A stretch of 64,000 nt of DNA from positions 1,667,317-1,731,316 of the forward strand of contig CP067345.1 in assembly GCA_020641055.1 (NCBI GenBank), in the 5' to 3' direction. The translations under genes and the position numbers were made by a program. The DNA is from Clostridioides sp. ES-S-0010-02 (lineage in GTDB: Bacteria; Bacillota; Clostridia; Peptostreptococcales; Peptostreptococcaceae). Positions 21,101 to 60,174 of the stretch are shown piece by piece (position 1 is the first letter of the stretch; each line of letters starts with the position of its first letter). The notes beneath the pieces were generated by a model. It was not told the DNA's origin, ran no database searches, and saw only the letters and a program-made list of their open reading frames with translations.

Positions 21101-21913
21101 ATGAGCACTCTTAGAGATCATTCTAATAATATTAGAAAAAACATAATAAAAATGGTTGCAGAAGCTAAAAGCGGGCATCCAGGTGGTTCATTATCAATAG
21201 CTGACATGTTAACAGTGTTATATTTTGATAAAATGAACATATGTGTAGAAAATCCAAAAATGGATGATAGAGATAGATTTGTTCTATCAAAAGGTCATGC
21301 AGCACCAGCTTTATATGCTACATTAGCAGAAAAAGGATTTTTCCCAGAAGAAGAATTATTGACACTTAGAAAGTTTGGTTCTAAGTTACAAGGACATCCA
21401 GACATGAAAAAAGTAGCAGGAGTAGATATGTCTACTGGTTCTCTTGGACAAGGTTTATCTGCTGCAAATGGTATGGCACTAGCTGGTAAATTAGATAATA
21501 AAGACTATACAGTGTATACTATATTAGGTGATGGAGAAATCCAAGAAGGTCAAATATGGGAAGCTGCAATGACAGCATCACATTATAAATTAGACAACTT
21601 AATTGCATTTGTTGACTTAAATGGATTACAAATAGATGGTTCTAATGAAGAGGTAATGAATGTTAGTCCAGTAGATGACAAATTTAAATCTTTTGGATGG
21701 AATGTAATAGTAATAAATGGACATTGTTTTGATGAAATAGGAAATGCAATAGATGAAGCTAAAAAAGTTACAGGAAAACCAACAGTAATAATAGCTAAAA
21801 CTGTAAAAGGTAAAGGTGTTTCATTTATGGAAAATAATGCTGCATGGCATGGAACAGCTCCAAATGCAGAACAAGCAGAACAAGCATTGAAAGATTTAGA
21901 AGGAGGTCTATAG
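21101..21913 (+). CDS. Transketolase, N-terminal (TPP-binding) subunit, locus 1
   Basis: Two-subunit transketolases are common in Clostridia. This 270-residue half carries [10 protein letters not shown], the [15 protein letters not shown] segment, and the TPP/Mg site [13 protein letters not shown]. It moves two-carbon units between sugar phosphates together with the C-terminal half encoded 2 bp downstream. AGGAGG precedes the ATG. From about 21379 the gene is nearly identical at DNA level to the locus 2 copy, whereas the first ~93 codons are clearly diverged. Confidence 0.95.
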
Positions 21914-22313
21914 GAATGGGAATAGCAACTAGAGAAGCTTACGGACAAGTGTTAAAAGAACTTGCAGAAAATAAAGATATAGTAGTATTGGATGCAGACT
22001 TAGGAAAAGCTACAAAAAGTATATCATTTAAAGAAGTTGCTCCAGATAGATTTTTTGATATGGGGATAGCAGAAGGTGACATGATTGGTACAGCAGCAGG
22101 TCTTGCTACTTGTGGAAAAATACCTTTTGCAAGTACTTTTGCAATATTTGCAGCAGGTAGAGGCTATGAGCAAATAAGAAACTCTGTAGCATATCCAAAC
22201 TTAAATGTTAAAATAGCAGCTACTCATGCAGGAGTAACAGTAGGAGAAGATGGAGGAAGCCATCAAGCTATAGAAGATATATCTTTAATGAGAGGTATAC
22301 CAAATATGGTTGT
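21379..22313 (+). repeat. Near-identical transketolase block, copy 1
   Basis: This stretch matches 58720-59654 at a constant offset of 37341 bp with only scattered differences. It spans the 3' two thirds of the N-subunit gene and the 5' ~400 bp of the C-subunit gene. Identity falls abruptly at both ends. Confidence 0.9.
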
Positions 22314-22836
22314 GTTAAATCCAGCAGATGCTTTAGAAGCAAGACAAGCAATATTTGCATCTATTGATTATAATGGACCTGTATATATAAGATTAGGTAG
22401 AGCTGCAACTCCAGATGTAAACAGTGAAAACTATAAATTTGAAATAGGAAAAGGAACTGTTTTAAGAGAAGGTTCTGATATAACAGTGATAGCTACAGGA
22501 ATAATGGTAGCAAAAGCATTAGAAGCAGCAGAAGAACTTGCTAAAGAAGGTATAAATGTAGAAGTTGTTAATATATCTACAATAAAACCTTTAGATGAAA
22601 CATTAATAAAAGAAAGTGCTAAGAAAACTGGAAAAGTAGTTACAGCAGAAGAGCATAGTATAATTGGTGGTTTAGGTTCAGCTGTATGTGAAGCTTTAGC
22701 AGAAACTAAAGATGTAGTAGTTAGAAGAATTGGTGTTAAGGATGTATTTGGTCAATCAGGTACACCAGCAGACTTATTAAAACATTATGGATTAACTACT
22801 GAAGATATAGTAAAAAATATAAAAGAATTATTATAG
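21916..22836 (+). CDS. Transketolase, C-terminal subunit, locus 1
   Basis: This 306-residue partner of the preceding gene contains the pyrimidine-binding and C-terminal domains (VLDADLGKATKS, FDMGIAEGDMIGTAAGLA, THAGVTVGEDGGSHQ). The start is the ATG at 21916, 2 bp after the preceding stop. Its AGGAGG site lies inside the end of the N-subunit gene, so translation is coupled. A longer in-frame extension upstream overlaps the N-subunit gene and is not expected to be used. Sequence up to about 22313 is shared with locus 2 and the remaining C-terminal ~170 residues are diverged. Confidence 0.94.
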   Translation: MGIATREAYGQVLKELAENKDIVVLDADLGKATKSISFKEVAPDRFFDMGIAEGDMIGTAAGLATCGKIPFASTFAIFAAGRGYEQIRNSVAYPNLNVKIAATHAGVTVGEDGGSHQAIEDISLMRGIPNMVVLNPADALEARQAIFASIDYNGPVYIRLGRAATPDVNSENYKFEIGKGTVLREGSDITVIATGIMVAKALEAAEELAKEGINVEVVNISTIKPLDETLIKESAKKTGKVVTAEEHSIIGGLGSAVCEALAETKDVVVRRIGVKDVFGQSGTPADLLKHYGLTTEDIVKNIKELL

Positions 22837-26123: not shown

Positions 26124-27119
26124 ATGTTTAAGAACAAATATGTTGAACGTGTTGAGCAGTTTATAAATGCATATTTTGTAGAGAGGGATGTGAAAAAATG
26201 TATGTCTTTTTTTCACAAAAATATATGTTGGATTGGTACTGGAAAGTTTGAAGTAGGGAATAGTATTGAAGAGGTAGAGTATTTATTAGAAGAGTATGTA
26301 AAACAATCACCAGATAGTTTTATTTTAGAAAAGTTATGGCTAGATAGTAAAGAATATTCAAAAAATTCACATACTGTATTTGGAGAGTATCTAGTTTGTA
26401 AGAAAACTAAAAAAGGCTATAATTTTCAAGTAGAAATAAGAATAACATACTTATGTGTTGAATATGAGGGAGAAATATTAATAAGTAGTGTTCATAATTC
26501 TGTTGCAAATGATTTACAAAAAATAGGTGAGTATTTTCCGATAAGTTTAATGGAAGCTGAAAATAATAGACTAGAGGCCATTATTAATGAAAAAACAAAA
26601 GAAATAGAAGAGCAAAGAGTTATGTTGTTAGAGGCAAACAGAAAACTTCAGCAACTGGCTATTACGGATGAATTAACTGGTTTATTAAATCAAAGAGCCA
26701 TTATGGGAAATATAAAATATACTGTTAAAGATAATTCTAAAAATTATGCAATAATGATAATCGACATAGATAATTTTAAACATGTAAATGATAATTATGG
26801 GCATCTAGTGGGAGATGAGGTTATAAGAGTGATGGCTTACATCATTCAATCATTTAAAGATTACTATCTATTTGCTGGTAGATATGGTGGAGATGAATTT
26901 ATTGTTTTGACAGAAAATATAGAAAAAGCAATTCATATTGAATCTAAAGTTCATAATAGTCTACTTAAATATAATTTTAAAGAACTTCAATATAAAATAA
27001 CTGTAAGCATTGGAATTTCTGAATGGATAGACTTTGATTCCTTTGAAGCATTTTTAAGCGAGGCAGATAAAAAATTATATAAAGCTAAAAAATCAGGAAA
27101 AAATAAGACTATATATTAG
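26124..27119 (+). CDS. Diguanylate cyclase with N-terminal NTF2/SnoaL-like domain
   Basis: The protein makes cyclic di-GMP from two GTP. The 331-residue soluble protein begins with an NTF2/SnoaL-like sensory domain (about 1-130, including KNICWIGTGKFEVG), then a coiled-coil linker (about 140-175) and a GGDEF domain with DNFKHVNDNYGH and an intact GRYGGDEF signature. The allosteric RxxD inhibitory motif just before GGDEF is absent, so product inhibition is not expected. The extended -10 TGATATAAT at 26081-26089 is a likely promoter. The N-terminal domain may sense a small metabolite, but its ligand is unknown. Confidence 0.88.
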   Translation: MFKNKYVERVEQFINAYFVERDVKKCMSFFHKNICWIGTGKFEVGNSIEEVEYLLEEYVKQSPDSFILEKLWLDSKEYSKNSHTVFGEYLVCKKTKKGYNFQVEIRITYLCVEYEGEILISSVHNSVANDLQKIGEYFPISLMEAENNRLEAIINEKTKEIEEQRVMLLEANRKLQQLAITDELTGLLNQRAIMGNIKYTVKDNSKNYAIMIIDIDNFKHVNDNYGHLVGDEVIRVMAYIIQSFKDYYLFAGRYGGDEFIVLTENIEKAIHIESKVHNSLLKYNFKELQYKITVSIGISEWIDFDSFEAFLSEADKKLYKAKKSGKNKTIY

Positions 27120-30941: not shown

Positions 30942-32141
30942 TTAATTACACAACGATTTTAATTGTGCTTTTAAGAATAATGTTATATTTTTAAATATAG
31001 TTCTTTCATCAAGATCATTTACATATATATCTTCAATACATGAATCTACAATAAATTCCTCACATAAATCCACTTCTATGTCTAGCTTAGGATTATATCT
31101 GTAACCATTTATTGTAACTACTGGTCTTCCAGGTGGTGAAATAACTATTCCTTCTTCATATGTCAAGCATTCAAATTTGGCATATGGAATTATATATGCT
31201 AAAAATGGTACTTCATAATGTGCAGAATGAACTGATTGTTCATCTACTAGAGCAGTATATACTATTTTCTGTTTTAATAAACCATTTACTATTAGTTTTC
31301 TTCCATTTAAGCATGTTCCTTCAGCATTTTGTAGTATTGCAAATGCACTAGTCTTGTCACAATCGATTGGTATTCTACTTAAACTTTCAACAAGTATAAT
31401 TAATATACCATTTTCTCCAATTAATATCTCAAATGAAGGTGTAATGATATTATTAATTATTGTTTGTAAAGTTGTTATTAATATTTCTATTAATGGTCCT
31501 TCAAGTGTACTAACTGTTTCAAATATATCATTGATAACAATTTGTATAGATTTTAGTAATCTTATTAAATCGTCTGTTCTGCATATTATAGAATTAAGAG
31601 ATTCGCATACTATTCTTGCTATATCAGTTTGAATTGTATTTAACAAATTATCAATATCAAATAAAATAGAATTCACAGATGGTTGAACTAAATCTAGTAA
31701 TCTTTGTAACTTAGCTAATAAAGGATTTATAATCTCACCTAATCCAGGTATTAAAGGTATAGCATCCTTAATTGTTGATATTAAATCATTTATTCCACCA
31801 ATCAATGTATTAATTGTTGTCTGTATATTTGCTGCTAGAAACGCATCTAATATAGCTTCTATTTTATTCAATATATCCAAGCTAATATATAAATTATATG
31901 ATTTATATGCAAATGGAGTTTCTATAAGTTTTACTGAAGTAATTGTTGCACTTGCATAAACTTGATCTATATTTTCTATATCAGGTTTTAATCTTGGGAT
32001 GGGAAGTATCTCAGGAATTGAAATCTCTGTCCAATTTAAGTTTTCTTTTTTACATCCATTCATATTTAATTTTGATACATCACATATACCTAAAGTTTTG
32101 ATATTAAAGTCACATTCACAAGTTTTTTTATTACATCCCAT
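30942..32141 (-). CDS. SPOCS/DUF3794-like protein with long helical insertion
   Basis: This 399-residue protein has no signal peptide and a Cys-rich N-terminus (KKTCECDF). The SPOCS-like domain is recognisable by ISIPEILPIPRLKPDIENI, then GRKLIVNGLLKQKIVYT, EQSVHSAHYEVPF and IEDIYVNDLDERTIFKNITLFL. Unlike its two neighbours, it carries a roughly 170-residue insertion (about 86-255) of Ile/Leu-rich amphipathic helices between the first strands and GRKL. The family is known from sporulation proteins such as SipL, but no LysM is present here. Function is unknown; a spore-coat or assembly role is inference. Confidence 0.7.
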   Translation of the reverse strand: MGCNKKTCECDFNIKTLGICDVSKLNMNGCKKENLNWTEISIPEILPIPRLKPDIENIDQVYASATITSVKLIETPFAYKSYNLYISLDILNKIEAILDAFLAANIQTTINTLIGGINDLISTIKDAIPLIPGLGEIINPLLAKLQRLLDLVQPSVNSILFDIDNLLNTIQTDIARIVCESLNSIICRTDDLIRLLKSIQIVINDIFETVSTLEGPLIEILITTLQTIINNIITPSFEILIGENGILIILVESLSRIPIDCDKTSAFAILQNAEGTCLNGRKLIVNGLLKQKIVYTALVDEQSVHSAHYEVPFLAYIIPYAKFECLTYEEGIVISPPGRPVVTINGYRYNPKLDIEVDLCEEFIVDSCIEDIYVNDLDERTIFKNITLFLKAQLKSLCN

Positions 32142-32171
32142 TTTTATTCCTCCTCATTTTATTTAAATTAC

Positions 32172-32774
32172 TTAACATATTTTTGATGCCTTTATAAAAA
32201 TAGTTGTATTTTTAAAGACACTTCTTTCTGATAATACACATGCATATATATCCTCTATATATGCTGTTATTTTAAATTGTTGGTATAGTGGTGTATTTTT
32301 CTCTATTATTATAAATACTGAAAATGGTATATTAAAATCTGCAGAATGAACTGATTGTTCACCTAGTGCTGCTGTATAGATTATTTTTTGTCTTAGTAGT
32401 CCCTCTATTATTAGTTTTTTTCCTGTCAAATTTGTACATTCTCCATTTGGTATAGTTTCTCCTGGGATATAGTATCCATTACATGAGCTGTATCCGTTTA
32501 CCAAAGGTGTTTTTATTACTCTTTGAGATATTATATCTACACAAGAATGTACTTCAACTATATCTTCTATATTTGGCTTTTGTGATGGTATATCTACTGT
32601 TTCTGATACAAAAAACTCTGTCCATTTGTTTTTATCTTCAGGACAGGGGCATTGCAAAACTTTTTCTATTTTTGATTCTGGATAGACACCAACAATATTT
32701 AATATCTTATCATCGCAACAGCATTTATCATGGAATTGATAAGATGTGCCATTTGTATAATTAGAATTTAACAT
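32172..32774 (-). CDS. SPOCS/DUF3794-like protein, short paralogue
   Basis: This 200-residue paralogue of the flanking genes shares FVSETVDIPSQKPNIEDI, GKKLIIEGLLRQKIIYTAA, EQSVHSADFNIPFSVFI and the C-terminal YIEDIYACVLSERSVFKNTTIF. A short Cys-containing N-terminus (DKCCCDDK) and a Gly/Tyr/Asn-rich linker of about 30 residues replace the insertion seen in the 399-residue protein. It is 30 bp from the neighbouring gene on either side, all on the minus strand, implying one operon. The exact function is unknown. Confidence 0.7.
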   Translation of the reverse strand: MLNSNYTNGTSYQFHDKCCCDDKILNIVGVYPESKIEKVLQCPCPEDKNKWTEFFVSETVDIPSQKPNIEDIVEVHSCVDIISQRVIKTPLVNGYSSCNGYYIPGETIPNGECTNLTGKKLIIEGLLRQKIIYTAALGEQSVHSADFNIPFSVFIIIEKNTPLYQQFKITAYIEDIYACVLSERSVFKNTTIFIKASKIC

Positions 32775-32800
32775 TTCCTCTACTCCTTATTTTTATAATT

Positions 32801-33373
32801 TTATAATGTATTTCTTGGTATTGCATATAATAATAATGTTGTATATTTAGAGATAGTTCTTGCATCTAATAGGCTTACAGACAAATCTTCTATACACGCA
32901 TTTACTTGATAGTCTACATCAAGTGAGTCTAATTTCATTGATTTTGTGCCCTTATTAAAAGTAATTTTCTGTGGTATAACTATATAGCTTGAAAATGGTA
33001 CATAAAAATGTGCAGAATGAACTGATTGAGATCTTTCATCAGCTGTATAAGATATTTTTTGACACAATTCACCCTCAACAATAATTTTTCTTCCTGTAGA
33101 GATTTTTCCTTCTAAGTTTGGTATAAAATCACAATTAGCATCTAAAGGTGATACAGGTGTTTTTACTACTTTTGTTCTCAATATATTCACTGATACATTA
33201 ACTGAATTTATCTGTTCAATATCTGGTTTTTGTATTGGGATACTTAATGTTTCTGGTATATACATCTGAAACCAATAAGGATATTGACTTATAACCTGTG
33301 TAACATCGTCTATGTCACATAAACCGCTTACATCAATTAAATCCATATTACAAGCACATGCATTACTATTCAT
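32801..33373 (-). CDS. SPOCS/DUF3794-like protein, first gene of the cluster
   Basis: This 190-residue paralogue has YIPETLSIPIQKPDIEQI, GRKIIVEGELCQKISYT, SQSVHSAHFYVPFSSYIVI and IEDLSVSLLDARTISKYTTLLL. The N-terminus again carries cysteines (NACACNMDL). It is the promoter-proximal gene of the minus-strand set, with GGAGAG before the ATG. The 198-bp gap to the divergent + strand paralogue at 33.57 kb probably holds both promoters. I could not assign a sporulation sigma-factor consensus with confidence. Confidence 0.7.
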   Translation of the reverse strand: MNSNACACNMDLIDVSGLCDIDDVTQVISQYPYWFQMYIPETLSIPIQKPDIEQINSVNVSVNILRTKVVKTPVSPLDANCDFIPNLEGKISTGRKIIVEGELCQKISYTADERSQSVHSAHFYVPFSSYIVIPQKITFNKGTKSMKLDSLDVDYQVNACIEDLSVSLLDARTISKYTTLLLYAIPRNTL

Positions 33374-33571
33374 ATTTATCTCTCCTTATATAATTTATTG
33401 AAAGTTTTTACCTCTCAATATAATTTATTTAAATTTCGACTTTTTGTTACATGTTTTTAAGATTTTTTATTTTTTTAGCTTTTTTATAACAATATATGAT
33501 TTTATATCATATATAAAATGTATATAGAAACTTTAATCTCTATATAATTATAAAATTAAGGAGATATTTAT

Positions 33572-34177
33572 ATGAATGAAAGTATTTTAAAAACGGGAAT
33601 TACACCCTTAGAAGACTATCCAGATAACAAATGTATGAAATACTATAAAGAATTTATAGAAGATGATATACTATGTGTTCCAACACAAAAACCAGATATA
33701 GAATGTATTAATGAAGTAAGTGTAAAGATATGCATAGAAGATAAGGAGATTATTAACACTATACTAGGGCCAAAATTAGTTATAAAAGGATTTAAAAATA
33801 TTAAGGTTATATATACAGGAGATAATTGTCAGCAGTCTCTTCATTCTGCACATTGGAGTATACCATTTTGTCAATTTATCTTGCTAAAAGATTTGAGGTA
33901 TGATAAGTGTGATAATATTATAGAAACTATTTTTGTTGGAATAGAGAATATTTGTGTAAAACACTTTGATTGTAGAATGATTGATTTATCACTATTATTT
34001 ATAATTTGTCCACAACTTCGTAATTGTAATAATTGTAAATGCTGTAGAAGTTATTGTATGCATAATCCAAATTTATGCTATTATGATAATGATGACTGTT
34101 CAGATAGTTGTAATAATGTTACACAATGTAAATATAGTCTTAGTGATAAATATAATAGTAAAATTAGATACAAATAA
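33572..34177 (+). CDS. Divergent SPOCS-like protein with Cys-rich tail
   Basis: This 201-residue protein is oriented opposite to its paralogues. CVPTQKPDIECINEV, GPKLVIKGFKNIKVIYT and QQSLHSAHWSIPFCQFI mark the same domain. The C-terminal ~45 residues are rich in Cys, Asn and Tyr (CNNCKCCRSYC, DDCSDSCNN), unlike the others, and could form disulfides or bind metal. AAGGAG precedes the ATG. Such tails are common in cross-linked spore-surface proteins, but that role here is inference. Confidence 0.65.
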   Translation: MNESILKTGITPLEDYPDNKCMKYYKEFIEDDILCVPTQKPDIECINEVSVKICIEDKEIINTILGPKLVIKGFKNIKVIYTGDNCQQSLHSAHWSIPFCQFILLKDLRYDKCDNIIETIFVGIENICVKHFDCRMIDLSLLFIICPQLRNCNNCKCCRSYCMHNPNLCYYDNDDCSDSCNNVTQCKYSLSDKYNSKIRYK

Positions 34178-34685: not shown

Positions 34686-35489
34686 TTAGTAGTTTCTATT
34701 ACATTTACATTTTTTTGTATAGCATTGTTTTTTGTACTTATCAAAGCATTCTTGTATATCATCTTCATAATTGTTTATATAAGATGAGTTTTCATGATAA
34801 ATATTACAATAGTCACAACCGTGATGTTCATCATGTTTACATTTTTTTGAACCACATTTTATAAATGCAATGGCTAATTTAATTAGTTCATCAATTAACT
34901 CTTCTATTTCATCCAATTCTTTTTCTAAATCACAAATTAGACAATCGCAGAAAGAAGATCTTACATCTTTTTCATCATTGCATGAAATGCAATCACTACA
35001 GAATATTAACAGTATAATTATTTTAGCTATAATAGATATTATTAAAAGTATAATTTGTACCAATAAGCAAAATAATTTTCCTACTAAAAATTCACAGTTA
35101 TCATTACAACTTATTTGTCTTATAGCTTCAGCTAAACACTCAGACAATCTAAAAGCTCTTTTTAATTCTTCTCTAAGTTTGCAGTTTTTTACATAATTAG
35201 AATCTATTAGAGATTCTAATTCTTCGGAAAGTTCATTTAATATGCCATTATCTAAATTGAAACTTAAATCTTTCTGAAAATCTAATTTAACTTTTGCATC
35301 ATATAAATCATAACTTTCGCCAACTAAAAAATATTTTATTATTCTCCATATTTGACAAGGTGTTAAATAAACTCTTGTATTTGCATCTAAATATTTCTCC
35401 TCTGTTAATCCAATTACTAATTTCATTAAATCACTAGAATATGATTCTAAATTATTTTTATAATATTCTAAACTCTTTGTATTATCCAC
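34686..35489 (-). CDS. Unrecognised Cys/His-rich protein with hydrophobic core
   Basis: This 267-residue protein matches no family I recognise. The N-terminal ~140 residues are charged and helical. A strongly hydrophobic stretch (about 145-170, LLVQIILLIISIIAKIIILL) could be one or two membrane helices and is followed by CSDCISC. An acidic helix comes next, and the C-terminus is a Cys/His/Lys-rich tail (CKHDEHHGCDYC, KKCKCNRNY). It starts at GTG 35489 after AGGAGTGG. Its neighbours with Cys-rich ends suggest a shared, possibly spore-surface, context, but this is inference. Confidence 0.6.
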   Translation of the reverse strand: MDNTKSLEYYKNNLESYSSDLMKLVIGLTEEKYLDANTRVYLTPCQIWRIIKYFLVGESYDLYDAKVKLDFQKDLSFNLDNGILNELSEELESLIDSNYVKNCKLREELKRAFRLSECLAEAIRQISCNDNCEFLVGKLFCLLVQIILLIISIIAKIIILLIFCSDCISCNDEKDVRSSFCDCLICDLEKELDEIEELIDELIKLAIAFIKCGSKKCKHDEHHGCDYCNIYHENSSYINNYEDDIQECFDKYKKQCYTKKCKCNRNY

Positions 35490-35545: not shown

Positions 35546-36100
35546 TGACTTGAGTACCTTTATGATACAAATAAAAACAAAATTTTACATTAATATATAT
35601 AAAAATGCTATTTCCAATTGAATTATATAATTTTTTTATATTTTGTGTAAATATATGAATAAACATGTGAAAGAACTTTTATGCAATAGAGGTATAATAA
35701 CTAAATTTAAGCATCCCTTAGATATAGATAAATTTATAAATTGTAATGGTGATAAATAATAATTTTGTTGTAAATGAAAATGATGTATAGAAGGCATTAA
35801 CTAATATTATAGAAGTATTAGATTCTAAAAATAAAGAAATTAGGGTAAATACAAATATAAATATATTAAAAGTCTAACTTATTTCAGACTTGAATAGAAA
35901 CAAAGTTATGTACGAAATGAAGGCAAACAGCAGTCCATGTGTTCTTTGATTTCGTACTTAAATAAAATCTCAAAATTATATCATGTTTTAATAAAAAATA
36001 AAACTGTGAATGCTAGAAATATATTTTAATTAATTTTTTAACAGAATAGTATTTAAAAGTAGATAAAACTAAAAAGGGTTTTCTAGAAAATAAGGTCTAT
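35546..36100. other. Accessory non-coding stretch with gene remnants
   Basis: Apart from the decayed ORF at 35655-35877, this region has one notable inverted repeat, GTACGAAAT (35910-35918) with ATTTCGTAC (35949-35957), and no intact gene. Confidence 0.4.
35655..35877 (+). pseudogene. Decayed small ORF (unknown family)
   Basis: A 34-codon ORF beginning MNKHVKELLCNRG ends at 35759. A +1 frame then continues NNFVVNENDV, a TAG, and KALTNIIEVLDSKNKE to a stop at 35875-35877. Read together, the parts look like one ancestral protein of about 75 residues broken by a frameshift and a stop. I cannot name the family. Phage or plasmid origin is possible. Confidence 0.45.
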
Positions 36101-36277
36101 TTAATTATACTTACTTACCAATACCATCACTTGATGCAAACAAGATTCTACTATATTTTCTCCGTATTCTAGTATAAAATCATCTAACTGTGTATCTATA
36201 AAATCACAATAATCATATGAACTACCAATATAAGCAGTTAACATATGTGTACATCTATCCATTTTATCTCTAAACAT
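36101..36277 (-). CDS. 58-residue protein under c-di-GMP-I riboswitch control
   Basis: This small ORF starts FRDKMDRCTHMLTAYIG and ends HQVMVLVSKYN. It is preceded by a GGGGG ribosome site (36288-36292) 10 nt before its ATG and by a complete promoter and c-di-GMP-I aptamer in the same orientation. It is acidic, has two cysteines near its middle and C-terminal part, no signal peptide, and no clear membrane helix. I recognise no family. The riboswitch context is strong evidence that it is expressed, and implies a role in the motile/sessile switch or in a c-di-GMP-linked mobile element. Confidence 0.65.
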   Translation of the reverse strand: MFRDKMDRCTHMLTAYIGSSYDYCDFIDTQLDDFILEYGENIVESCLHQVMVLVSKYN

Positions 36278-36311
36278 ATATTATTATCCCCCTAAAAAAC
36301 TTTCATAAAAA

Positions 36312-36333
36312 CAAAAAGAAAAATATCTTTTTG
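36312..36333 (-). terminator. Possible riboswitch expression-platform terminator
   Basis: On the minus strand CAAAAAGA pairs with TCTTTTTG around a 6-nt loop and is followed by TTTTT. It begins at the last base of the aptamer P1 helix. The stem is A-U rich and may instead be a weak attenuator. Confidence 0.45.
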
Positions 36334-36416
36334 GCAACTGGCTGACATAACTTATAATATACTTTACAAGTCTTAGTCCCTATAGCTTTGCGTCACTAAA
36401 TTTCTCTAGTTTTGCC
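36333..36416 (-). ncRNA. c-di-GMP-I (GEMM-I) riboswitch
   Basis: On the minus strand GGCAA (36416-36412) pairs with TTGCC (36337-36333) as P1. Inside are the class I hallmarks: CTAGAGAAATTTAG, with a GAAA tetraloop that docks in the receptor, then GTGACGCAAAGCTATAGGG and CAGCCAGTTGCC. It lies 55 nt before a 58-codon ORF. Confidence 0.93.
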
Positions 36417-36441
36417 GATTTAGTTTTATTCTACAACTACA

Positions 36442-36470
36442 ATAATACAACAGAATTAGTTATTATTCAA
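36442..36470 (-). promoter_or_regulatory. Promoter of the c-di-GMP riboswitch transcript
   Basis: On the minus strand TTGAAT (36470-36465), a 17-bp spacer and TATTAT (36447-36442) lie about 25 bp before the aptamer. Confidence 0.7.
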
Positions 36471-36635: not shown

Positions 36636-37013
36636 GTGGAAGAAGAAATATTAATAGAACAGTTAGTAAGAGCAGAATTTGTGGTAATGTGCTATCTATG
36701 GGAAAAAGATTCTTTGATATCTAAAAAAGAAATAATAAGAGACATAAAGCAGATATATGGATGGCATAAGAGTACAATAAAAATAATATTAAAAGGATTA
36801 ATTTGTAAGGATTTTTTAGCTAGAGATATTATAAGATTTCAATCGCATTATAAAATAATAATAACTAGTGAAGAGTATGATACTTTCAAGAAAAAAGTAT
36901 TAAAATCTACTAAAAACAGAAAAATTATACGTTCTCTTACGACTACACATAAGTCCATAAGTAAAGAAAAACTATATTATTTAGAAGAGTATTATAGGAA
37001 TTTTGAAGAATGA
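36636..37013 (+). CDS. BlaI/MecI/CopY-like winged-helix repressor
   Basis: This 125-residue protein's N-terminal ~80 residues (AEFVVMCYLWEKDSLISKKE, WHKSTIKIILKGLICKDFL) match the winged helix of penicillinase-type repressors that bind as dimers. The start is a GTG (36636) with GAGGGAG upstream. No beta-lactamase, BlaR sensor or copper exporter is adjacent, so its target is unknown. A C-terminal fragment of a paralogue (EEYFKNLK against EEYYRNFEE) survives at 38569-38622. The region carries toxin-antitoxin and riboswitch elements typical of accessory DNA. Confidence 0.7.
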   Translation: MEEEILIEQLVRAEFVVMCYLWEKDSLISKKEIIRDIKQIYGWHKSTIKIILKGLICKDFLARDIIRFQSHYKIIITSEEYDTFKKKVLKSTKNRKIIRSLTTTHKSISKEKLYYLEEYYRNFEE

Positions 37014-58438: not shown

Positions 58439-59254
58439 ATGAATAAAAAACTAAAACAAATAGCTAAAAACATAAGAATAAGTATTATAAAAAGTATAAC
58501 AGAAGCTAAGTCTGGACACCCAGGAGGTTCGCTGTCAATAGTAGATATATTAACTGTATTGTATTTTGAAAAAATGAATATAGACCCTATAAAATTTAAT
58601 GATGAAGATAGAGATAGATTTGTATTATCAAAAGGGCATTCTGCACCAGCATTATATGCAACTTTGGCAGAAAGAGGTTATTTTGAAAAAAAGGATTTAA
58701 TAAGTTTAAGAAAATTTACTTCTAAGTTACAAGGACATCCAGACATGAAAAAGGTAGCAGGAGTAGATATGTCTACTGGTTCTCTTGGACAAGGTTTATC
58801 TGCTGCAAATGGTATGGCATTAGCTGGTAAATTAGATAATAAAAGCTATAAAGTATACACTATTTTAGGAGATGGCGAGATTCAAGAAGGACAAATATGG
58901 GAAGCTGCAATGACAGCATCACATTATAAATTAGATAATTTAATTGCATTTGTTGACTTAAATGGATTGCAAATAGATGGTTCTAATGAAGAAGTAATGA
59001 ATGTTAGTCCAGTAGATGGCAAATTTAAATCTTTTGGATGGAATGTAATACTAATAAATGGACATTGTTTTGATGAAATAGGAAATGCAATAGATGAAGC
59101 TAAAAAAGTTACAGGAAAACCAACAGTAATAATAGCTAAGACTGTAAAAGGTAAAGGTGTTTCATTTATGGAAAATAATGCTGCATGGCATGGAACAGCT
59201 CCAAATGCAGAACAAGCAGAACAAGCATTGAAAGATTTAGAAGGAGGTCTATAG
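58439..59254 (+). CDS. Transketolase, N-terminal subunit, locus 2
   Basis: This 271-residue half has [10 protein letters not shown] and the TPP site [13 protein letters not shown]. Its first ~93 codons differ from the locus 1 copy at many positions, but from about 58720 onward the DNA is nearly identical to it. AAGAGG precedes the ATG. The gene lies 19 bp after the dehydrogenase gene. Confidence 0.95.
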   Translation: MNKKLKQIAKNIRISIIKSITEAKSGHPGGSLSIVDILTVLYFEKMNIDPIKFNDEDRDRFVLSKGHSAPALYATLAERGYFEKKDLISLRKFTSKLQGHPDMKKVAGVDMSTGSLGQGLSAANGMALAGKLDNKSYKVYTILGDGEIQEGQIWEAAMTASHYKLDNLIAFVDLNGLQIDGSNEEVMNVSPVDGKFKSFGWNVILINGHCFDEIGNAIDEAKKVTGKPTVIIAKTVKGKGVSFMENNAAWHGTAPNAEQAEQALKDLEGGL

Positions 59255-59654
59255 GAATGGGAATAGCAACTAGAGAAGCTTACGGACAAGTGTTAAAAGA
59301 ACTTGCAGAAAATAAAGATATAGTAGTATTGGATGCAGACTTAGGAAAAGCTACAAAAAGTATATCATTTAAAGAAGTTGCTCCAGATAGATTTTTTGAT
59401 ATGGGGATAGCAGAAGGTGACATGATTGGTACAGCAGCAGGTCTTGCTACTTGTGGAAAAATACCTTTTGCAAGTACTTTTGCAATATTTGCAGCAGGAA
59501 GGGCTTATGAACAAATAAGAAACTCTGTGGCATATCCAAACTTAAATGTTAAAATAGCAGCTACTCATGCAGGAGTAACAGTAGGAGAAGATGGAGGAAG
59601 CCATCAAGCTATAGAAGATATATCTTTAATGAGAGGTATACCAAATATGGTTGT
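58720..59654 (+). repeat. Near-identical transketolase block, copy 2
   Basis: Matches 21379-22313 in direct orientation at an offset of 37341 bp. The block ends abruptly at a NPAD codon run in the C-subunit gene, after which the two copies differ in most wobble positions and many residues. Confidence 0.9.
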
Positions 59655-60174
59655 ATTAAATCCTGCTGATGGAATAGAAGCAAAGAAAGCTATATTTTCT
59701 GCTGTAGATTACAATGGTCCTGTATATCTAAGACTTGGAAGAGCAACTACTGAAGATATACATAATGATGATTATAATTTCAAAATTGGAAAGGGCGAGA
59801 TTCTTAGACAAGGTTCAGATGTAGCTATAATTGCAACTGGAATAATGGTTTCAAAAGCTATTAAATCTGCTGAATTATTAAGTAAAGAGGGACTTGAAGC
59901 TATGGTAGTTAATATATCAACTATAAAACCAATTGATAGTGAACTTATAGTAGAGGTAGCTAAAAATACTGGTAAGGTGGTAACTGTAGAGGAACACAGT
60001 GTAATAGGTGGATTAGGTTCTGCTGTTACAGAAGTTTTAAGCGAGAAATACCCTGTTGTAGTAAAGAGGATAGGTATAAATGATGAATTTGGTCAATCAG
60101 GAAATCCAGAATCTCTATTAAACTATTATGGATTGACTGTAGAAAATATAGTTAGTACTGCAAAATCATTCTAA
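59257..60174 (+). CDS. Transketolase, C-terminal subunit, locus 2
   Basis: This 305-residue partner of the preceding gene starts at ATG 59257, 2 bp after the N-subunit stop, using the AGGAGG inside that gene. The N-terminal ~130 residues are essentially those of the locus 1 subunit (FDMGIAEGDMIGTAAGLA). The C-terminal part is a distinct sequence (GIEAKKAIFSAVDYNGPV), so this is a mosaic with a shared front end. Confidence 0.94.
   Translation: MGIATREAYGQVLKELAENKDIVVLDADLGKATKSISFKEVAPDRFFDMGIAEGDMIGTAAGLATCGKIPFASTFAIFAAGRAYEQIRNSVAYPNLNVKIAATHAGVTVGEDGGSHQAIEDISLMRGIPNMVVLNPADGIEAKKAIFSAVDYNGPVYLRLGRATTEDIHNDDYNFKIGKGEILRQGSDVAIIATGIMVSKAIKSAELLSKEGLEAMVVNISTIKPIDSELIVEVAKNTGKVVTVEEHSVIGGLGSAVTEVLSEKYPVVVKRIGINDEFGQSGNPESLLNYYGLTVENIVSTAKSF

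What the first reader, a model, noticed from the sequence alone, without database searches (positions are those of the whole stretch)
36101..36470. c-di-GMP-I riboswitch controlling an unrecognised 58-residue protein
A complete unit (TTGAAT-17-TATTAT promoter, class I aptamer, candidate terminator, GGGGG site, 58-codon ORF) lies on the minus strand in a stretch otherwise poor in genes. Such short ORFs are usually missed by annotation. Direct c-di-GMP control implies a role in lifestyle switching or in the surrounding accessory element.
Basis: partly seen in the sequence, partly recalled or inferred. Interest (0 to 1): 0.72.

Follow-up and report, generated by a model that had tools for sequence, protein, structure and literature searches.

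The report
c-di-GMP switch on sporulation-brake protein family
A known RNA switch that senses a bacterial signal molecule controls a tiny protein of Clostridioides, and that protein belongs to a family in which one member has been reported to hold back spore formation, which gives a testable link between the signal and sporulation.

Summary
In detail: a full c-di-GMP-I aptamer (RF01051, 76.6 bits), a sigma-A-type promoter, an A-T-rich terminator-like hairpin and a 58-codon ORF lie on the minus strand. It is not unrecognised: by gene length, order and neighbours it is Cdi-1-9/CD2309 (CD630_23090) of C. difficile, published as an OFF switch and core rather than accessory. What I add: (1) The protein belongs to a family found in 8 of 147 genomes searched, all of this genus, 7-12 hits each; 44 of 78 class I aptamers in those genomes precede a member. 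(2) The family includes CD16671, target of antisense RNA SpoZ, whose overexpression was reported to reduce sporulation. So these riboswitches probably set the dose of sporulation brakes, a link I did not find in the papers seen. (3) Copies without a recognisable aptamer carry VirR/RgaR-like boxes, driving the gene or, for CD16671 (8 of 8 genomes), the antisense RNA. (4) The mRNA 3' end is complementary to its own 5' leader, beyond chance but without covariation. Against: raised c-di-GMP is reported to inhibit sporulation, the opposite of what lowering a brake predicts, so this branch may counteract another, or CD2309 does something else.

The parts
36442..36470 (-). sigma-A-type promoter TTGAAT-17-TATTAT
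   Evidence: hexamers and spacing recognisable in the 11 units aligned; PMC3649979 Table 3 gives TATTAT 17 bp TTGAAA for the relative RCd5 (passage).
36419..36434 (-). 5' leader GTAGAATAAAACTAAA, complementary to the 3' block
   Evidence: The transcription start was not mapped here; if it lies inside this stretch the helix is shorter.
36330..36426 (-). c-di-GMP-I aptamer (RF01051)
   Evidence: 76.6 bits; alignment.
36307..36333 (-). expression platform: A-T-rich terminator-like hairpin with U-run
   Evidence: PMC3649979 reports a terminated 140-nt transcript for Cdi1_9 (section read).
36288..36292 (-). ribosome binding site GGGGG
   Evidence: AGGGGGAT (AGGAGGAT in 2 rows) in the 31 units aligned.
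36101..36277 (-). 58-aa protein of the CD16671/CD2309 family (phrog_9888)
36059..36090 (-). conserved 3' block TTTTCTAGAAAACCCTTTTTAGTTTTATCTAC, complementary to the leader and part of the 5' half of the aptamer; near the right edge of the duplicated unit

Best explanation
The locus is Cdi-1-9/CD2309. At low c-di-GMP, RNA polymerase reads through the leader and a 58-aa soluble-looking protein is made; c-di-GMP binding favours termination and lowers the mRNA (shown in the literature for strain 630, inferred here by homology and synteny). The protein belongs to the same family as CD16671, a 58-aa protein whose accumulation was reported to inhibit sporulation and sigE/sigG expression. I infer that CD2309 and its riboswitch-controlled paralogues act as dose-dependent brakes on early sporulation, made when c-di-GMP is low, while the copies without a recognisable aptamer are wired to an RgaR/VirR-type regulator. 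Family membership and the boxes are shown here by sequence; that RgaR acts on the 60-aa copies, and that CD2309 itself is a brake, are inferred.
For: Riboswitch. Regulation: PMC6200980 Tables 1-2 (section read): CD630_23090 -4.66 in RNA-seq, 0.31 in qRT-PCR under DccA (significance marks are lost in the held text, and the paper says 3 of 7 such genes missed significance); Northern blot in PMC3649979 (section read). Identity: same 177-nt gene length; phosphoribosyltransferase gene with purine riboswitch 26 kb away (xpt is CD2330 in PMC11477304); other own-genome aptamers near the expected 630 places in inverted order (compared by hand). Family: 8 of 147 genomes, all one genus, 7-12 hits each; 44 of 78 aptamers precede a member by 42-71 nt. 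CD16671 identification: own-genome copy L032/L090 is 47/58 = 81% identical in protein and 81.6% in DNA to the Cdi-1-8-type copy, against 81% and 80% published for CD16671/CD19903; an antisense double box with 1-2 mismatches starts 372-379 nt past its stop in 8 of 8 genomes; a 528-nt antisense RNA placed by the published G-51/G-72 positions would end 17 nt past its start codon, as described for SpoZ. CD16671 overexpression: sporulation down 1.8-fold, sigE/sigG down 1.6-fold. Purifying selection. CD16671-type copies nest among riboswitch copies.
Against: Raised c-di-GMP lowers sporulation (PMC8653836, passages), whereas an OFF switch on a brake predicts more. Deleting CD16671 alone had no effect, its overexpression effect is small, and the spoZ-CD16671 mutant could not be complemented. 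I saw no phenotype reported for CD2309. Nesting of the CD16671-type in the tree has only moderate support (86/79 and 92/59) and the tree carries a long-branch warning.
Confidence: 0.6

Rival explanations
1. Plain OFF riboswitch on a small protein with a surface, motility or other vegetative role at low c-di-GMP; the CD16671 effect on sporulation is an overexpression side effect.
For: Other class I OFF targets in strain 630 are flagella, a putative adhesin and the ZmpI protease; deletion of CD16671 did nothing; the sign conflicts with c-di-GMP inhibition of sporulation.
Against: CD16671 is placed under the sporulation-promoting RgaSR/SpoZ system, and its overexpression lowers sigE/sigG.
Confidence: 0.3
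2. The RNA is the main product: the terminated leader, or the mRNA 3' block, acts in trans on family mRNAs through the conserved complementarity, and the protein is secondary.
For: Leader and 3' block are nearly invariant and stay almost unchanged in 5 of 8 copies with a broken ORF; 3' block hits with at most 1 mismatch adjoin a family member in 40 of 40 cases; the relative RCd5/Cdi1_6 is reported as Hfq-associated and 199-fold stationary-phase induced (passages).
Against: The ORF is under purifying selection; no covariation in the long-range helix; flgB and three other own-genome aptamer leaders also pair with the 3' block (-21.5 to -14.0 kcal/mol against -24.6 for the RCd5-like leader), so specificity is weak; no trans interaction has been tested.
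Confidence: 0.1
3. The inverted similarity of leader and 3' block is the terminal inverted repeat of a small mobile unit, which explains the dispersed copies.
For: Dispersed units of roughly 450-500 bp in most paralogue pairs compared, with edges past the 3' block; broken copies exist.
Against: Homology continues upstream of the left repeat through the promoter. Target duplications and recombinases were not looked for.
Confidence: 0.05

Closest known systems
Cdi-1-9 / CD2309 (CD630_23090), C. difficile 630
   Same: Same riboswitch class, gene length, place and neighbours; taken to be the same locus.
   Different: The window is from an unnamed Clostridioides genome of 4.259 Mb; the letters of strain 630 were not available for comparison.
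CD16671 with antisense sRNA SpoZ (PMC10602386)
   Same: Homologous 58-aa protein (the own-genome CD16671-type copy is 44/58 identical to the window ORF) with homologous promoter, leader and 3' block.
   Different: Aptamer no longer recognisable (no RF01051 match at E 10); reported to be controlled by an RgaR-driven antisense RNA.
CD1990.3 (CD19903) and CD3368.2 with Cdi-1-8 and Cdi-1-11
   Same: Riboswitch-small-protein units that PMC3649979 calls highly homologous to Cdi1_9, also lowered by c-di-GMP in RNA-seq.
   Different: Other loci; CD19903 is the only one that the sections I read of the SpoZ paper compare with CD16671.
RCd5 / Cdi1_6
   Same: The likely own-genome counterpart L008 has an identical 24-nt leader and a related aptamer.
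   Different: No 58-aa ORF; a csp-like ORF follows (by eye).

Membership tests
c-di-GMP-I riboswitch (RF01051) | Covariance-model score above the gathering threshold | tested here: met
   76.6 against 35 bits.
c-di-GMP-I riboswitch (RF01051) | Conserved core around the ligand pocket (GGCAAA, GAAA, GACGCAAA, CUAAG) | tested here: met
   Alignment; which residues touch the ligand is recalled.
c-di-GMP-I riboswitch (RF01051) | Binding of c-di-GMP and ligand-dependent termination | not testable with these tools
   In-cell regulation reported for the strain-630 locus.
CD2309/CD16671 small-protein family | Full-length sequence homology | tested here: met
   CD16671-type copy matched over residues 1-58 at E 1.7e-27; phrog_9888 matched by all 6 proteins tried.
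CD2309/CD16671 small-protein family | Inhibition of sporulation when expressed | not testable with these tools
   Published for CD16671 only, as far as seen.
Known domain family (Spo0E-like considered by eye) | Profile match | tested here: not met
   No Pfam match up to E 10 for 6 members; none in NCBIfam up to E 1 for the window ORF. HMMER filters drop most weak matches, so a remote relation is not excluded.
Type I toxin | Short hydrophobic membrane protein | tested here: not met
   Mean hydropathy -0.10, best 19-residue window 0.75, 10 acidic and 4 basic residues.
Type I toxin | Antisense RNA at the locus | tested here: inconclusive
   A + strand promoter-like site at 36331-36358 scores 11 of 12 but is not kept in the copies by eye; no transcript data.

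The most novel reading that the evidence does not exclude
c-di-GMP riboswitches directly set the dose of a multi-copy family of sporulation brakes in Clostridioides, with RgaR (direct boxes, and the SpoZ antisense) as the second input; in addition the terminated leaders and the complementary 3' blocks of the copies cross-talk in trans, so that one c-di-GMP signal reaches even the copy that has lost its aptamer.
Probability: 0.15. Interest if true: 0.75.

Novelty: already known. Interest (0 to 1): 0.45.

Why it matters
PMC8653836 states that c-di-GMP inhibits C. [quoted passage not shown] If the 58-aa proteins are sporulation brakes like CD16671, at least three functional riboswitches (Cdi-1-8, -9, -11) do, and the question becomes directly testable, including why the sign seems reversed. 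The locus itself is already published; the family-level link is what I did not find in searches (listings, several capped at 15-20 rows) or in the parts of papers that I saw.

Tried and rejected
Accessory or phage element: tblastn of the peptide finds no phage record and 1 plasmid. IMG/VR gives 20 loci, several near contig ends, and a PHROG exists, but PMC6200980 reports the switch in all 54 complete genomes it looked at, so I rejected a mobile-cargo reading for this copy. Spo0E-like fold: a resemblance by eye only, no profile support, dropped. PDB sequence search: one non-significant hit, E 0.15. Covariation for the 5'/3' helix: 0 pairs with both sides changed, and the shuffle control equals the observed value because the columns hardly vary. 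The first double-box search had the spacing one base short and found 0; repeated with 10 bases. The box pattern was taken from family copies, so '10 of 10 next to a family member' is partly circular; published RgaR targets such as agrB1D1 do not show up among its hits, and at 3 mismatches it also hits an unrelated place in the window (17805). An antisense promoter inside the aptamer was dropped because it is not kept in the other copies by eye.

Full report
What is there. The minus strand of 36059-36470 carries a promoter, a c-di-GMP-I aptamer (36426-36330, 76.6 bits), an A-T-rich hairpin with a U-run (36333-36307), a GGGGG site and a 58-codon ORF (36277-36101), followed by a conserved 32-nt block (36090-36059; letters checked). 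The aptamer aligns to the whole model with its core stretches intact.

Which locus. The genome is an unnamed one of 4.259 Mb. The 21 named loci found with the peptide in genome contigs are all Clostridioides difficile records, and the one plasmid hit is Clostridioides sp., so I place the window in Clostridioides, species not resolved. PMC6200980 Table 1 (section 8 read) lists CD630_23090 as 177 nt downstream of Cdi-1-9; the window ORF is 177 nt. A phosphoribosyltransferase gene with a purine riboswitch lies 26 kb away, as expected near CD2330 (xpt, passage). With this anchor and inverted order, the own-genome aptamers L001, L006 and L002 fall within about 25 kb of the places of flgB, CD2797 and zmpI (by hand). 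I take the locus to be Cdi-1-9/CD2309. PMC3649979 (section read) reports by Northern blot a terminated 140-nt RNA and repression of the CD2309 transcript by c-di-GMP; PMC6200980 gives -4.66 (RNA-seq) and 0.31 (qRT-PCR; significance marks not visible in the held text). [quoted passage not shown] So switch, gene and direction are already in print.

The family. The peptide matches 8 of 147 genomes searched, all of one genus, with 80 places, 7 to 12 per genome, some broken. Class I aptamers number 78 in those 8 genomes; 44 of them lie 42-71 nt upstream of a family member on the same strand, in the window's own genome 3 of 8. Selection on 36 distinct 58-codon ORFs is purifying: median dN/dS 0.128 over the 618 of 630 pairs with dS above 0.1 (maximum 0.47). 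Most paralogue pairs compared share a unit from the promoter region to just past the 3' block. No Pfam or NCBIfam family matches; PHROG 9888, of unknown function, does. The protein is acidic and not hydrophobic.

Link to sporulation. PMC10602386 (sections 8-10 read, other passages seen) describes CD16671, a 58-aa ORF under antisense sRNA SpoZ, which RgaR activates. Overexpression of CD16671 lowered sporulation 1.8-fold and sigE/sigG 1.6-fold; deletion had no effect. The paper names one relative, CD19903 (81% protein, 80% nucleotide identity), which is the Cdi-1-8 gene in PMC6200980, and its main text contains the word riboswitch 0 times. In the window's genome the copy at 2570658 (L032/L090) is 81% (47/58) and 81.6% identical to the Cdi-1-8-type copy. 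A VirR-like double box with 1-2 mismatches lies on the opposite strand, starting 372-379 nt past its stop, in 8 of 8 genomes (6, 2; distances). From the published G-51/G-72 positions, a 528-nt antisense RNA would end 17 nt beyond its start codon, close to what is reported. I therefore identify it as CD16671. It keeps promoter, leader and 3' block but gives no RF01051 match even at E 10. In a tree of 42 ORFs the six distinct CD16671-type rows form one clade (100/100) placed among riboswitch copies with moderate support, and the six 60-aa rows form another (99/99); the program warns that long branches meet between the 60-aa rows and the rest. The likely history is loss of the aptamer in the CD16671 lineage.

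Second input. In the six 60-aa copies looked at, the leader and aptamer are absent (by eye; no RF01051 there). A double box CCAGTTTNNCA-N10-CCAGTTTNNCA (at most 1 mismatch) occurs 10 times in 7 of 8 genomes and not in G005; all 10 lie 106-141 nt upstream of a family match. The pattern came from family copies, so this is partly circular, but the 21-nt spacing of its G residues equals that of the two G residues mutated in the spoZ promoter. Two further 60-aa copies (L086, L100) have a weaker version with 3 mismatches, a level at which an unrelated place in the window also matches. The VirR consensus as such is recalled.

5'/3' complementarity. The 3' block is close to the reverse complement of the leader and of part of the 5' half of the aptamer. 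In 32 units above 80% identity, leader and 3' UTR pair with median -17.3 kcal/mol, z -5.4; 6 of 9600 shuffles reach the observed values. A further riboswitch unit, L005, gives z -4.9; five CD16671-type units give z -1.9 to -3.9, with 0 to 15 of 300 shuffles reaching them; copies without a 58-codon frame were left out. On 31 aligned units 97.8% of cells pair, against 33-53% when slid, with 0 compensatory changes; RNAalifold recovers most of the helix. Whole-mRNA folding of the window copy also has it, but the total energy is only modestly low (z -1.32, 9 of 100 shuffles). 3' block hits with at most 1 mismatch adjoin a family member in 40 of 40 cases; 5 of 11 two-mismatch hits do not. Leaders of four other own-genome c-di-GMP-I genes also pair with it (-14.0 to -21.5 against -24.6 kcal/mol for the RCd5-like leader), so it may be a generic anti-aptamer sequence. 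Its function is unknown; fold-back control of the mRNA, or trans pairing with terminated leaders, are candidates. The transcription start was not mapped.

How it most likely works. Shown elsewhere: c-di-GMP lowers CD2309 mRNA, with a terminated short RNA. Shown here: homology to CD16671 and the boxes. Inferred: CD2309 restrains early sporulation at low c-di-GMP. The difficulty is the sign: raised c-di-GMP is reported to lower sporulation about 1.4- to 4-fold, by strain and construct (PMC8653836, passages). Either the riboswitch branch counteracts a stronger inhibitory route, or CD2309 has a different role. PMC8653836 says that no riboswitch appeared to affect sporulation-related genes; the homology makes that worth re-testing.

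What is new. Riboswitch and gene: known. That the riboswitch-controlled 58-aa proteins are one family with the sporulation inhibitor CD16671, wired to c-di-GMP and RgaR-type boxes, was not found in search listings 15, 16, 23, 31, 51, 61, 78 and 85 or in what I saw of the papers; the library lacks most subscription journals. Papers seen: sections of PMC6200980, PMC3649979 and PMC10602386; part 1 of 3 of PMC6366702; passages of PMC11477304, PMC7699646, PMC8428550, PMC8653836, PMC11706538 and PMC11651100.

Noticed in passing
window 26124-27119 (+): A GGDEF (diguanylate cyclase-type) protein lies about 9 kb from the riboswitch unit.
   Followed up: no
window 30942-34177: Four similar ORFs of SipL/SPOCS type by eye; three were tested, two above the Pfam cut-off and one just below; an unmatched 267-aa ORF follows at 34686-35489.
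   Followed up: no
window 36636-37013 (+): A BlaI/Penicillinase_R-type regulator (PF03965) is divergent from the 58-aa unit.
   Followed up: no
window 21101-22836 and 58439-60174: Two transketolase-like gene pairs with near-identical protein stretches, 37 kb apart (by eye).
   Followed up: no
L008 (own genome 2110614-2110710): Likely counterpart of RCd5/Cdi1_6: identical leader and aptamer with a changed 3' end, no 58-aa ORF, followed by a csp-like ORF.
   Followed up: partly
L057, L058 (4844 and 7319), L022 (2511-2879), L040 (9276-9644): Five of the 8 copies with broken 58-aa ORFs keep leader and 3' block almost unchanged; in L059 the 3' block is altered, in L084 and a third L058 copy it was not found.
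   Followed up: partly
L101 8001-8183: A 60-aa family member with a perfect double box on the Clostridioides sp. plasmid pESS17301a, in the neighbourhood of secretion-type genes.
   Followed up: no
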